A program made the position numbers and the translations under genes. The notes under the pieces are model-generated. The model had not been told where the DNA came from. It searched no databases and was given only the letters and a program-made list of their open reading frames with translations. From assembly GCA_012959805.1 (NCBI GenBank), contig DUCN01000042.1, forward strand, positions 41,443 through 105,442: 64,000 nucleotides of DNA, given 5' to 3'. This document shows positions 35,457 through 40,700 of this stretch, one piece after another; the stretch's first letter is position 1; the number at the start of each line of letters is the position of its first letter. This stretch comes from Myxococcales bacterium. GTDB lineage: Bacteria > Myxococcota_A > UBA9160 > UBA4427.

Positions 35457-35984
35457 TCATGGGGAAGGCATCTGTCCCGGAGTCGGTAGCACCGACACCG
35501 GCATTGACTCCGGCTCGAGGCCCAACGCGATCAAGGTCTTCGAAAGCGCCAAGAACAATCCCACGCCGATCGAGAGCTCGACGATTTGCGCATCATCGAA
35601 ATGAGCTCGCAGGGTCGCCTTCTCCTGGTCCGTGAGCGTGCGCGGCGGGCCGATCAGCACGTCCGTCAGCTCGAGTGCCGCGACCTCCGCATCACAAAGA
35701 GCCGACTCCTCGTATCCATCCGCGATCGTCTCGATCTCGGACTCGTGCAACCCCTCGGCTCGCGCACCCGCGAACCTCACGTTCCTTCAGAACCCGCAAT
35801 CCGTGATGCGCGCGTTTCGGATTCGCGTGATTTCCTTGATACGTTGACTGACTCTGCCCTGCTGCCAGAAATGCGCGTAGAGATCCGCAAAGCGAGACGC
35901 CATCTCAGGCTGATGGGCGAGAACGGTTCCGAAGTCAGCGGACTTTCCGGGAACAGCAGAGGAGACTCGAATTTTCGTCGACAT
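35457..35984 (-). CDS. CMD-family protein with in-frame TGA (candidate selenoprotein)
   Basis: A 176-codon frame (175 residues) broken only by a TGA at codon 66. The sequence around it reads EITRIRNARITDCGF-TGA-RNVRFAGARAEG. In carboxymuconolactone decarboxylase/AhpD-like proteins this position is the second Cys of the redox CxxC motif, so TGA sits where Cys or Sec is expected (CxxU). The frame remains open and protein-like on both sides: SAVPGKSADFGTVLAHQPEM before, LTDQEKATLRAHFDDAQIVE and LSIGVGLFLALSK after. A strong stem-loop begins 10 bases after the TGA. ATG 35984 with GAGG 9 bases upstream is the likely start. It is the third gene after an ABM monooxygenase and a Cys-poor CMD paralogue. 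If the TGA is not decoded, this is a recent nonsense mutant. Confidence 0.7.
35757..35776 (-). promoter_or_regulatory. SECIS-like stem-loop downstream of the TGA
   Basis: On the coding (minus) strand GGTTCGCG-GGTG-CGCGAGCC forms an 8-base-pair hairpin (seven Watson-Crick pairs, one G-T) with loop GGTG. The loop begins 18 bases after the TGA at 35787-35789. Bacterial selenocysteine insertion elements are short stem-loops right after the UGA with a GGU-type apical loop, as in E. coli fdhF (about 11 bases from UGA to the stem). The fit is good. The high G+C content means a chance hairpin is possible. Confidence 0.55.
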
Positions 35985-36011: not shown

Positions 36012-36521
36012 TTAATAGAGCGTGCCTGTCCGCGACGCCGGCGGGTCGACATTCCGGGCCTCGGGTGCAACTTCGAGTACGAGTCGTAGACGACAACTCG
36101 CGTCAAAAAGCGGCAGCGCGAGCATCAACGCAACCAGCCCATCATCACCGAGCCCCAGGCACAGCGCCTCGATTTCGTCGTCCCCTACATCATGGATCTC
36201 GAAGGGCACCTTCGAAGCGACGGCAAGGACGCGTCTTTCGAGGTCCGTCATCGAATCCGGGATGTCACCGCGCGAGAGACTCGAGCGCTCGGCGATCGTC
36301 AGGCCGGACTCCGAATGTGCGATTGCGCTCTCCGCCTCGCAGCGGTTGAGCCGCGCGATCCGGAGGCGGCAGAGTTCGAGAAGCCGCGCGGGCAGGACGC
36401 CCTCGTCCCATATTGCCCCGTAGAACCCGCGGTAACGCTCCAGCAGTTCAGGGCACAGGCCGAGCACGCTCTCGAAGCCATCGATGGCCGGCGAATCGTT
36501 ACGCGAGGCGAGCCAACTCAA
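36012..36521 (-). CDS. CMD/AhpD-like protein without CxxC
   Basis: A 169-residue carboxymuconolactone decarboxylase-like, all-helical protein. The core helix reads LLELCRLRIARLNRCEAESA followed by IAHSE. The first Cys is kept, but the position of the second Cys is Glu (CEAE), so the usual redox pair is missing. It aligns with the candidate Sec position of the neighbouring gene 27 bases downstream. The start is a TTG at 36521 with AGGA just upstream; the ABM gene stop is 13 bases before. The two CMD genes and ABM gene probably form one operon. Confidence 0.7.
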   Translation of the reverse strand: MSWLASRNDSPAIDGFESVLGLCPELLERYRGFYGAIWDEGVLPARLLELCRLRIARLNRCEAESAIAHSESGLTIAERSSLSRGDIPDSMTDLERRVLAVASKVPFEIHDVGDDEIEALCLGLGDDGLVALMLALPLFDASCRLRLVLEVAPEARNVDPPASRTGTLY

Positions 36522-36534
36522 GGCGATCCTAGCC

Positions 36535-36891
36535 CTAGTCCGATTCGCTGAAAAAATCTGCTCGCGGAGTCATCGTTTCATCGTAAACGGGCTCCTGCGC
36601 GTCGACCCGGTACTTCAGGGTTTCGGCGGCGATCAGTCCAAATGCGCCGATGTGCTCTCTCATTTTCAGATACCACTGCGTCTTGAAATGGGCGGCAAGC
36701 GCCTCTTCGGACTCCCAGCGCTCAAGAATCCGAATGCGGCCAGGCACGAGCGGGTTCGGACACCAGTCATAGTCGAGACAGCCCTTCTCTGTGAGGGCGC
36801 CCTCGATCAGAGGCCGTGCCGTCTCGATCGCCTTGAGTGTGTTCTCGGGCGGCAGATCAATGGTTCCGGAAATGATGATGCGCGTAGCCAT
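36535..36891 (-). CDS. Antibiotic biosynthesis monooxygenase (ABM) family protein
   Basis: A 118-residue small ferredoxin-like-fold protein of the ABM/YgiN type. It begins MATRIIISGTIDLPPENTLK and contains LTEKGCLDYDWCPNP and RIRILERWESEEALAAHF, the typical 'E.W.s.eal..H' helix. Such proteins act as cofactor-free monooxygenases of quinol or aromatic substrates. It heads an operon with two CMD genes, as expected for aromatic or quinone handling. An inverted-repeat operator candidate lies at 36925-36951, about 34 bases upstream. Confidence 0.8.
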   Translation of the reverse strand: MATRIIISGTIDLPPENTLKAIETARPLIEGALTEKGCLDYDWCPNPLVPGRIRILERWESEEALAAHFKTQWYLKMREHIGAFGLIAAETLKYRVDAQEPVYDETMTPRADFFSESD

Positions 36892-38267: not shown

Positions 38268-39458
38268 ATGTCTGCTCTCGACACCTTCCGTTCCGAAACC
38301 CGAAGCTGGCTCGAAGAGAACTGCCCAGCCGCGATGCGAACGCCGCCCGAAAAGACCGACACCGTCTGGGGCGGTCGGCGCTCAACGTTTCCGAATGAAG
38401 ACGCGAAAATCTGGCTTGAGCGCTGCGTCGAAAAGGGCTTCACCGCGCCCGAATGGCCGACCGAATATGGCGGTGCCGGGCTGTCGCGAGAAGAGGTCAG
38501 GGTGCTCCGCTCCGAGATGAAAGCACTGCGATGCCGTCCACCGATCTTCAACTATGGCCTCTTGATGCTCGCGCCGGTCCTTCTCGAGTACGGGACCGAC
38601 GAACAAAAGGCCGAACATCTTCCTCCGATCGCTCGCGGTGAGATCCGCTGGTGCCAAGGTTACAGCGAGCCCGGCGCCGGATCGGACCTTGCGGGTCTGC
38701 AATGTCGCGCGGTCCGCGACGGCGACGAAATTGTCGTCAATGGCCAGAAGATCTGGACATCGGATGCCGACGTCTCGGACTGGATCTTCTGTCTCGTGCG
38801 AACGAACACCGAGGTGCCTAAGCATGACGGCATCTCGTTCCTCCTTTTCGACATGGAGAGCAAGGGCGTTTCGGTTTCGCCCATCCCATTGATCAGCGGT
38901 GCCTCGCCATTCTGCCAGACCTTCTTTGACGACGTCCGTGTACCGGCACGGCACCTGATCGGCAAAGAGAACGGCGGCTGGACGATCGCCAAGCGACTCC
39001 TCCAGCACGAGCGAGAAATGCTCTCGGAATCCACCGCCGGCGCACGCCCTACCCAGAAGAAGACGCTCGTCGATGTTGCGCGCGAATCTCTCGAAGTACC
39101 GGAGGGTCCACTGACAGACGGAGTGCTGCGCGACGAACTCGCGCAGCTGTATATGGATCGGCTCTGCTACAGCGCGACCCTCGAGCGCAGCCGCGACCAG
39201 GCGCTCGCAGGCATCGGGCCCGGCCCGGAAACCTCCATGTTCAAGCTCTACCTCTCGGAGCTCGGCCAGCGAAACAGCGACTGGCGTCATCGAGTCGTCG
39301 GTGCGCGGGGACTTGGCTGGGACGGCGACGGATTCGATGACGAGGAACTACAGACCACACGCGAGTGGCTCTACGGGAAGGCTTCCACAATCCTGGGCGG
39401 CACTTCCGAAATACAACTGAATATCATCGCCAAGCGCGTTCTTGGGCTCCCCGACTGA
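38268..39458 (+). CDS. Acyl-CoA dehydrogenase family protein, first subunit
   Basis: A 396-residue flavin acyl-CoA dehydrogenase. The substrate/FAD segments QGYSEPGAGSDLAGLQCRAV and VNGQKIWTSDADVSDWIFCL are present, and the C-terminal end ASTILGGTSEIQLNIIAKRV is typical. The gene next to it is a divergent ACAD, and such pairs often form alpha2beta2 enzymes in steroid side-chain degradation (ChsE1/ChsE2-like). The genes that follow (DUF35 and thiolase-like) support this. The start at 38268 gives normal length. The gap to the next gene is 90 bases. Confidence 0.85.
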   Translation: MSALDTFRSETRSWLEENCPAAMRTPPEKTDTVWGGRRSTFPNEDAKIWLERCVEKGFTAPEWPTEYGGAGLSREEVRVLRSEMKALRCRPPIFNYGLLMLAPVLLEYGTDEQKAEHLPPIARGEIRWCQGYSEPGAGSDLAGLQCRAVRDGDEIVVNGQKIWTSDADVSDWIFCLVRTNTEVPKHDGISFLLFDMESKGVSVSPIPLISGASPFCQTFFDDVRVPARHLIGKENGGWTIAKRLLQHEREMLSESTAGARPTQKKTLVDVARESLEVPEGPLTDGVLRDELAQLYMDRLCYSATLERSRDQALAGIGPGPETSMFKLYLSELGQRNSDWRHRVVGARGLGWDGDGFDDEELQTTREWLYGKASTILGGTSEIQLNIIAKRVLGLPD

Positions 39459-39548
39459 GTCGACGGACGAGCAGCACCCCAACCAAGCCCCTGGACGGAC
39501 GCTTGCCCATGATTCTCCTTCCCATCGCCCCCAGCCCGGAGCCCCCAG

Positions 39549-40700
39549 ATGTCTGAAGCCTCATCGCTCGTGTTGACAGAAGAACAACAACTCATCCAAG
39601 AAACGACACGCGACTTCGTCGCTGATCAGTGCAGCGTCGACTCGCTCCGTCAGCTTCGCGAAAAGCGCGAAGACGCCGGATTCGACAGGGCGCTCTGGAA
39701 GCAATTGGCGGAGCTTGGCTGGACCGGCATCATCATTCCCGAAGAGTACGGTGGCGCGGAACTCGGCCTGGCCGAGCTCGGCGTTGTCCTCGAGGAACTT
39801 GGGCGAAAACTCGCGATCACCCCGCTCATCAGCACGCTCGTGGCGGGGGCCGGCTGCCTGGTCAGGGCTGGATCCGATGAACACAAAGCGGCGATTCTTC
39901 CTGCGGTCTGTGAAGGCGATCTACTACTCGCCCTCGCCTGCCAGGAAACTGCCCGCCACGATCCCTATTCCGTCTCGACAACCGCCCGCAAAGACGGTGA
40001 TGGCTTCGTGATCGACGGTGCCAAGACTCTCGTCCTCGATGGCGCGGCCGCCGACCGATTCATCGTCGTCGCTCGCACGAGTGGCGACTCGGGCGAGCGT
40101 TCCGGCCTCTCGCTCTTCCTGGTCGATGCGAACGAGACGGGGCTGAGCCGCAAGCCAACCTTCCTCATCGACAGCCGCACATGTGCGGATCTCACTCTCT
40201 CTGGAGTCCGCGTCGACTCGGGCGCCCTGATAGGCGCGCTCGGGGCCGGCGCTGATATACTCGACCCGGTTCTCGACAGCGTAGCGGCTTCGCTCTCTGC
40301 GGAGATGTTGGGCGGCGTCCTCGACACCTTCGAGCGCACCGTCCAGTTCCTGAAGGATCGAGAGCAGTTCGGCGTCAAGATCGGCAGCTTTCAAGGGCTC
40401 AAGCACCGGGCGGCGAGGTGGTTCTGCGAGGTCGAACTCTCGAAGTCGATCGTCTTGAAGACGCTTCGCGCACTTGATTCGAACGACGTTCAGGCCCCCG
40501 AACTGAGCGCCGCCTGCAAGGCGCGGCTGTCAGATACATTCCGCTACTCCGGCGAGGAAGGCATCCAAATGCACGGCGGAATTGGCGTAACAGACGAAGA
40601 AGACATCGGGTTCTACATGAAACGCGCTCGCGTCTCCGAACTACTCTTCGGCGATGCAAGCTTTCACCGGGATCGATTCGCCAGCCTGCAGTCATTCTGA
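39549..40700 (+). CDS. Acyl-CoA dehydrogenase family protein, second subunit
   Basis: A 383-residue member of the same family. It begins LVLTEEQQLIQETTRDFVAD, contains WTGIIIPEEYGGAELGLAEL and ends IQMHGGIGVTDEEDIGFYMK followed by RA. The usual GGTxE segment near the end is missing, and the central 'QET..HDPYSV' region is altered (CQETARHDPYSV). This is as expected for one half of a heteromeric ACAD, where only one subunit type carries the catalytic base and full FAD site. Heteromerisation with the upstream gene product is inferred. Confidence 0.8.
   Translation: MSEASSLVLTEEQQLIQETTRDFVADQCSVDSLRQLREKREDAGFDRALWKQLAELGWTGIIIPEEYGGAELGLAELGVVLEELGRKLAITPLISTLVAGAGCLVRAGSDEHKAAILPAVCEGDLLLALACQETARHDPYSVSTTARKDGDGFVIDGAKTLVLDGAAADRFIVVARTSGDSGERSGLSLFLVDANETGLSRKPTFLIDSRTCADLTLSGVRVDSGALIGALGAGADILDPVLDSVAASLSAEMLGGVLDTFERTVQFLKDREQFGVKIGSFQGLKHRAARWFCEVELSKSIVLKTLRALDSNDVQAPELSAACKARLSDTFRYSGEEGIQMHGGIGVTDEEDIGFYMKRARVSELLFGDASFHRDRFASLQSF

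What the first reader, a model, noticed from the sequence alone, without database searches (positions are those of the whole stretch)
35457..35984. Candidate CxxU selenoprotein of the carboxymuconolactone decarboxylase (AhpD-like) family
Seen: one in-frame TGA at 35787-35789 interrupts an otherwise continuous 175-residue CMD-family frame, exactly where the second Cys of the CxxC motif should be (ARITDCGF-TGA-RNVRFAG). Both sides are protein-like, with no frameshift. An 8-bp hairpin with loop GGTG starts 10 bases after the TGA. Known: bacterial SECIS elements are short stem-loops just after UGA with a G-rich apical loop, and AhpD-like selenoproteins have been described. Inference: TGA is read as selenocysteine. 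The alternative is a recent nonsense mutation, which must be taken seriously because other decayed genes occur in this window.
Basis: partly seen in the sequence, partly recalled or inferred. Interest (0 to 1): 0.85.

Follow-up and report, generated by a model that had tools for sequence, protein, structure and literature searches.

The report
Selenocysteine enzyme with inactive-looking partner gene
A gene that looks broken by a stop codon is very probably intact: the stop is most likely read as selenocysteine in the active site of a peroxidase-like enzyme, a known kind of protein that here sits beside a related gene lacking the active site.

Summary
On the minus strand, 35984-35457, lies a 175-codon CMD-family gene (PF02627) with one in-frame TGA at 35789-35787, at the second position of CxxC. 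In 13 of 13 genes of its subfamily that I collected (12 genomes) this codon is TGA (8) or TGC/TGT (5). TGA carriers reach into gammaproteobacterial and Acidimicrobiia MAGs, and the part after the TGA stays 42-59% identical. The genome holds tRNA-Sec, selA and selB; selD was not found, but the assembly is 90% complete and 8 of 8 same-genus genomes have selD. The hairpin meets the published bacterial SECIS model, but is only modestly stronger than synonymous-codon shuffles (p 0.04). CxxU CMD/AhpD-like selenoproteins have been in print since 2005, so this is a new member of a known kind. Less expected: the gene directly follows a second CMD gene without CxxC, also at 11 of 11 other loci examined (10 by tblastn, one by eye); at one of these, and at a further locus, both lie in one reading frame. 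I propose a catalytic selenosubunit with a non-catalytic partner.

The parts
35457..35984 (-). CMD-family gene (called CMD2 here), 175 codons, predicted CxxU selenoprotein
35787..35789 (-). in-frame TGA, codon 66, predicted selenocysteine (second position of CxxC)
35757..35776 (-). hairpin 10 nt after the TGA: 8 bp, loop GGUG, predicted bacterial SECIS element
   Evidence: model constraints from the passages of PMC13188914 shown
36012..36521 (-). CMD1: CMD-family paralogue without CxxC, directly upstream in the same orientation, 27 nt between the genes
36535..36891 (-). ABM-domain (antibiotic biosynthesis monooxygenase) gene upstream of CMD1; possibly in the same operon, but tblastn found no convincing ABM relative in the stretches held of the other 11 loci

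Best explanation
The gene encodes a small, mostly helical AhpD/CMD-type oxidoreductase whose UGA codon 66 is decoded as selenocysteine by SelB and tRNA-Sec with help of the stem-loop just downstream, giving a C63-x-x-U66 redox pair. The likely chemistry (inferred) is a thiol-dependent peroxidase or reductase reaction: U66 attacks a peroxide or similar substrate, C63 resolves the product as a selenylsulfide, and a cellular dithiol reduces it. The neighbouring CxxC-free CMD1 is inferred to be its non-catalytic partner subunit.
For: Shown: in 13 of 13 subfamily genes from 12 genomes the codon is TGA (8: window, two in G045, L053, L054, L055, L056, L058) or Cys (5: L025-L029; L057 and L059-L062 are the same five genes again and were dropped from the count). 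After the TGA the six aligned TGA relatives keep 42-59% amino-acid identity over 103-106 residues, with second codon positions changed less than third ones. The genome has tRNA-Sec (68 bits; ARAGORN SeC tca), selB (281 bits, cut-off 242) and selA (521 bits, cut-off 268). The hairpin meets all four constraints of the bSECIS model quoted in PMC13188914: loop 4 nt, stem 8 bp, G first in the loop, 18 nt between UGA and loop, -13.6 kcal/mol. E51, R54, C63, C/U66, R70 and E136 are among the invariant columns of 20 aligned rows, window included. The model (pLDDT 90.3) matches AhpD-like structures such as 2gmy, 2o4d and 7xw1. 21 other TGA-carrying CMD genes lie in genomes of the same order or class, with a codon-uniform stem after the TGA.
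Against: selD was not found in this genome. The SECIS hairpin is modest: p 0.04 for the window, but 0.35 for the nearest relative in the same order (L024) and 0.43 for L058, and some Cys relatives also fold well, for example -15.6 kcal/mol in L029. Two TGA-carrying genomes, G149 and G150, gave no selA, no selB (E limit 1e-40) and no confirmed tRNA-Sec (E limit 1e-6); G151 gave no tRNA-Sec; how complete these assemblies are was not told. None of the 8 same-genus genomes has this gene at E 1e-20 or better. No protein and no reads were examined.
Confidence: 0.94

Rival explanations
1. A recent nonsense mutation: the gene is a pseudogene and the TGA is a real stop.
For: selD was not found in the assembly, and the gene was not found in 8 of 8 same-genus genomes, so it may be dispensable or recently acquired.
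Against: The TGA is shared, at exactly the Cys codon, by TGA relatives only 45-57% identical to it in several lineages, which have no other internal stop before the C-terminal end. The downstream part stays under protein-level constraint. selA, selB and tRNA-Sec are present.
Confidence: 0.03
2. A sequencing or assembly error for TGC or TGT.
For: A single base separates TGA from the Cys codons.
Against: The same codon is TGA in seven further genes from six other genomes.
Confidence: 0.01
3. The TGA is read through as another residue (Trp or Cys by a changed code), or ends a working 65-residue product.
For: TGA reassignment exists elsewhere (established knowledge); the truncated frame would still carry C63.
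Against: This gene ends in TGA itself; the aligned residue in the five non-TGA subfamily genes is Cys, not Trp; the downstream part is conserved; a tRNA-Sec is present.
Confidence: 0.02

Closest known systems
AhpD-like 2 / CMD domain-containing selenoproteins (pfam02627, CxxU) of the Sargasso Sea and GOS surveys (PMC1088965, PMC2398784; passages seen)
   Same: Same Pfam family, same CxxU motif, found there by Sec/Cys pairs; the surveys describe small apical loops with a guanosine.
   Different: I did not compare sequences with the published members. [quoted passage not shown] here the neighbour is a CxxC-free CMD paralogue.
AhpD-like 1 (COG2128, YciW) and NCBIfam NF053654 'YciW-related (seleno)protein', TIGR01926
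   Same: Related family, CxxU; P0001 matches NF053654 at 39.7 bits and TIGR01926 at 36.9 bits.
   Different: Far below the curated cut-offs (310 and 81.8), so not a member of those two named families.
Wider CxxU CMD family in the same order and class (L031-L033, L035-L052)
   Same: TGA at the homologous codon; hairpin just downstream.
   Different: 26-36% identical to the window protein; hairpin loop at +21 in 21 of 21 instead of +19; a separate branch in the tree.
M. tuberculosis AhpD (recalled: Glu118, Cys130, Cys133, His137)
   Same: The spacing Glu-x11-Cys-x2-Cys matches E51-C63-U66; U66 would sit at the Cys133 position (residue numbers and roles recalled, from no call).
   Different: Arg70 stands where AhpD has His137; only a poor Foldseek match to the H137F mutant 1lw1 (E 2.1). 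The best matches are other AhpD-like proteins.

Membership tests
Bacterial selenoprotein | In-frame UGA aligned with Cys in homologues | tested here: met
   13 of 13 subfamily genes TGA or TGY
Bacterial selenoprotein | Sec machinery in the genome (tRNA-Sec, SelA, SelB, SelD) | tested here: inconclusive
   tRNA-Sec, selA and selB found; selD not found (best hit read as thiL by eye), though 8 of 8 same-genus genomes have it over the cut-off
Bacterial selenoprotein | bSECIS stem-loop (loop 3-9 nt, stem 4-16 bp, G in first two loop positions, 16-37 nt from UGA, MFE <= -7.5) | tested here: met
   against the model; synonymous-shuffle p 0.04, so weak on its own
Bacterial selenoprotein | Sec actually incorporated | not testable with these tools
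   needs 75Se labelling or mass spectrometry
CMD family PF02627 | Score over Pfam gathering cut-off | tested here: met
   28.5 against 23 bits
CMD family PF02627 | AhpD/CMD fold | tested here: met
   predicted model, pLDDT 90.3; Foldseek 2gmy, 2ijc, 2o4d, 7xw1, E 1.6e-5 or better
AhpD core domain TIGR00778 | Score over curated cut-off | tested here: not met
   15.7 against 27.8 bits
NF053654 YciW-related (seleno)protein | Score over curated cut-off | tested here: not met
   39.7 against 310 bits
TIGR01926 peroxidase-related enzyme | Score over curated cut-off | tested here: not met
   36.9 against 81.8 bits
Peroxidase activity | Thiol-dependent peroxide reduction | not testable with these tools
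   inferred from fold and motif only

The most novel reading that the evidence does not exclude
The gene is the catalytic half of an unrecognised two-part CMD enzyme: an obligate pair of a CxxU (or CxxC) subunit and a CxxC-free pseudo-enzyme paralogue that assemble into one hetero-oligomer, sometimes as a single fused chain, spread between phyla by horizontal transfer and switching between Sec and Cys at one codon.
Probability: 0.45. Interest if true: 0.5.

Novelty: new member of a known kind. Interest (0 to 1): 0.36.

Why it matters
An annotation by table 11 alone would call this gene broken or cut it at codon 66, and would do the same to 28 other CMD genes met here (7 of the subfamily, 21 of the wider family), so selenium use in this lineage would be undercounted. 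The recurring CxxC-free partner gives a concrete, testable idea of how these little-studied CxxU proteins are built, and the natural Sec and Cys forms within one subfamily allow a direct comparison of what selenium adds.

Tried and rejected
A GC3-based scan for other interrupted frames in the window listed 9 stop codons but did not list the target TGA, so it is too insensitive to use and I draw nothing from it. The first script translated minus-strand loci in the wrong orientation and was redone with strands set. The first translation of the finding's coordinates on the plus strand showed no such frame. The best selD hit in the own genome was rejected as selD: 69.6 bits against a cut-off of 125, a frame after a lon-like frame that I read as thiL by eye. 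The best or only tRNA-Sec model hits in G063, G058 and G149 (48.1, 48.2 and 42.8 bits) were rejected because ARAGORN types them as Ser, Cys and Ser; the hits L088 and L089 were not typed. I looked for strict compensatory changes between the hairpins of the window, L024 and L077: the stems start at the same place (+11), but the pairs are shifted in L077, so I claim no covariation. A paper search aimed at a paired or heteromeric CMD listed one paper, on fungal aromatic catabolism, which I did not open.

Full report
What is there. The gene lies on the minus strand, 35984-35457: ATG, 175 codons with one in-frame TGA at codon 66 (35789-35787), and a terminal TGA. Pfam gives CMD, PF02627, 28.5 bits against a gathering score of 23; the best NCBIfam hits (NF053654 'YciW-related (seleno)protein' 39.7 bits, TIGR01926 36.9 bits) stay far below their cut-offs of 310 and 81.8, and all six NCBIfam hits listed are below cut-off. 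So it is a CMD-family protein, but not of a subfamily named in that library.

Selenocysteine machinery. The genome holding the window (4.46 Mb, 136 contigs, 90% complete) has a tRNA-Sec at 68 bits that ARAGORN types as SeC, anticodon tca, selB at 281 bits (cut-off 242) in a 647-codon frame directly after what I read, by eye, as serS, and selA at 521 bits (cut-off 268). selD did not reach its cut-off; the best hit is a frame after a lon-like frame that I read as thiL. In a search of 25 genomes by handle, 21 of 25 had selD over the cut-off, among them 8 of 8 same-genus genomes; the misses were the own genome, G040, G058 and G150. An assembly gap is the simplest reason here, but that is inference.

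Relatives. A search of 147 genomes (own and relatives) with the read-through protein gave CMD hits in 83 of 147, many with one TGA inside. Closest is G045 (52%, TGA). One scan of genome contigs with an alignment in which the CxxU/CxxC residues were masked gave 10 loci; it rested on one C-terminal peptide pattern, so it sees only relatives that keep it. L053-L056 (three gammaproteobacterial MAGs and one MAG labelled Klebsiella pneumoniae, a label I doubt) and L058 (Acidimicrobiia MAG) carry TGA at the same codon; L057 and L059-L062 are, by their translations, the same genes as L025-L029 and carry TGT or TGC. Their record titles (uncultured bacterium, Deltaproteobacteria twice, Proteobacteria, Myxococcota) are the only hint at the lineage of the window, since these genomes belong to its order. 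G045 has a second gene with TGA. Dropping the five duplicates leaves 13 genes from 12 genomes: 8 TGA, 5 Cys, nothing else. In 20 aligned rows, window included, E51, R54, C63, C/U66, R70 and E136 are among the invariant columns.

Is the part after the TGA alive? Against the six TGA relatives tested (L024, L053-L056, L058), identity before the TGA is 49-62% over 65 residues and after it 42-59% over 103-106 residues, and second codon positions differ less than third ones on both sides. A true stop codon shared by such distant relatives would not leave this pattern.

Hairpin. The stem 35776-35757 meets the four constraints of the bacterial SECIS model given in PMC13188914 (passages seen). As a test I shuffled synonymous codons within each gene 300 times. 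The window hairpin has p 0.040; the other TGA subfamily members give 0.35 (L024), 0.22, 0.03, 0.13, 0.04 (L053-L056) and 0.43 (L058); the five Cys members give 0.30, 0.79, 0.11, 0.94 and 0.61 (L025-L029). The second G045 gene was folded (7-bp stem at +11, loop AGGU) but not shuffled. So the hairpin is supportive, not decisive: the shuffled window genes average -7.6 kcal/mol, about the model's energy limit.

A wider family. L031-L052 are 22 CMD genes from the same order or class, 21 with TGA and one (L034) with TGC. The stem ACGCGUC-GGC-GACGCGU at +14 to +30 is present in 18 of 21; by the synonymous-shuffle test the 21 have p between 0.007 and 0.60, 8 of them at or below 0.05. In codons +5 to +10, which form the stem, one codon makes up 90-100% of the rows with the majority residue, while codons +1, +3 and +4 show 40-62% and +11 to +13 show 62-76%; some codons outside the stem are as uniform (-17, -3, -1, +2, +14), most of them of low degeneracy. 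The Cys member has lost the stem sequence. No test over the tree was done and the rows are related, but I take this as RNA-level constraint beside a CxxU codon. The tree puts the window gene with G045 and the four TGA genes L053-L056 (93/92), beside a Cys clade (99/97) that L058 joins with weaker support (91/69), and apart from the wider family; L077 was not in the tree.

Phyletic pattern. Within the order, 6 of the 78 other genomes searched have the gene at E below 1e-60, and none of the 8 same-genus genomes has a match at 1e-20 or better (in rich genomes only the best 45 candidates were scored). A search of 377 genomes drawn from the phylum, with 9 candidates scored per genome, gave the same 7 genomes, own included. 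The nearest relatives by identity are partly in gammaproteobacterial MAGs (53-55% by tblastn). Horizontal transfer is likely but was not tested formally. Sec machinery of the TGA carriers other than the own genome: G045 selA, selB, tRNA-Sec and selD; G147 all four; G148 selB, tRNA-Sec, selD and a partial selA below cut-off; G151 selA, selB and selD but no tRNA-Sec; G149 selD only; G150 none over a cut-off. Cys carriers: G078 and G050 all four; G063 selA, selB and selD; G040 selA and tRNA-Sec; G058 none confirmed. Cys carriers can thus often make Sec too.

The partner. Directly upstream, 36521-36012, is a second CMD gene (27.9 bits), called CMD1 here. tblastn finds CMD1 just upstream of CMD2 at 10 of the 11 other loci searched (E 7e-6 or better); at the eleventh, L024, an ORF in that place looks like CMD1 by eye. 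In L060 (G050, one of the 11) and in the second G045 gene (L077) CMD1 and CMD2 lie in one open frame; in L077 CMD1 was recognised by eye, and whether one chain is made is not known. In 13 aligned CMD1 proteins no CxxC is present at the motif; four (window, L053, L054, L057) keep a Cys at the first position, and L024 has a gap there. Pairing and fusion point to a joint complex; this is inference.

Mechanism. The model (pLDDT 90.3) has the AhpD/CMD fold; best solved matches are 2gmy, 2ijc, 2o4d, 3c1l and 7xw1. From what I recall of M. tuberculosis AhpD, U66 would hold the place of the peroxide-attacking Cys133 and E51 that of Glu118; Arg70 replaces His137. I therefore think it is a peroxidase or related reductase in which U66 is the attacking residue and C63 the resolving one. 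Substrate and reductant are unknown; neighbouring acyl-CoA dehydrogenase-like frames (38268-40700, named by eye) hint at lipid breakdown.

What is known. CxxU AhpD-like and CMD selenoproteins were reported in 2005 (PMC1088965: AhpD-like 27, CMD domain-containing 4), in 2008 (PMC2398784: AhpD-like 1, 299; AhpD-like 2, pfam02627, 70) and are listed in reviews of 2022 and 2026 (PMC9312934, PMC13188914); for all four I saw passages only. [quoted passage not shown] I saw no CMD1-CMD2 pair. The searches 'selenoprotein' with 'carboxymuconolactone decarboxylase', 'AhpD-like' or 'YciW', and 'selenocysteine' with 'carboxymuconolactone decarboxylase', listed 5, 7, 1 and 8 papers, 13 different ones, of which I opened 4; one search aimed at a heteromeric CMD listed one unrelated-looking paper. 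So I do not claim that the pair is unpublished. Verdict: a real selenoprotein gene, new member of a known kind, with an interesting recurring partner.

Noticed in passing
L077 404-1480 (G045:C1) and L060 4395-5480: CMD1 and CMD2 in one open reading frame, once with TGA and once with Cys at the active site.
   Followed up: partly
L031-L033, L035-L052: A wider CxxU CMD family, common in this order, with the stem ACGCGUC-GGC-GACGCGU at +14 to +30 after the TGA in 18 of 21 genes.
   Followed up: partly
selD hits, e.g. G005:C59:7926-8843: In 7 of 8 same-genus genomes the selD match sits in an open frame of 774-821 codons while the model covers about 305, as in the Ndh-SelD fusions described in PMC2398784 (passage seen).
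   Followed up: no
L009 163-1461 and 1480-3423: selB lies directly after a frame that looks like serS (by eye), whose product would charge tRNA-Sec with serine.
   Followed up: no
L054: MAG contig titled Klebsiella pneumoniae whose gene groups with those of gammaproteobacterial MAGs only about 55% identical to the window; the label is probably wrong.
   Followed up: no
L063-L066: Four selD genes with an in-frame TGA, that is, SelD itself probably a selenoprotein (G151, G013, G022, G078).
   Followed up: no
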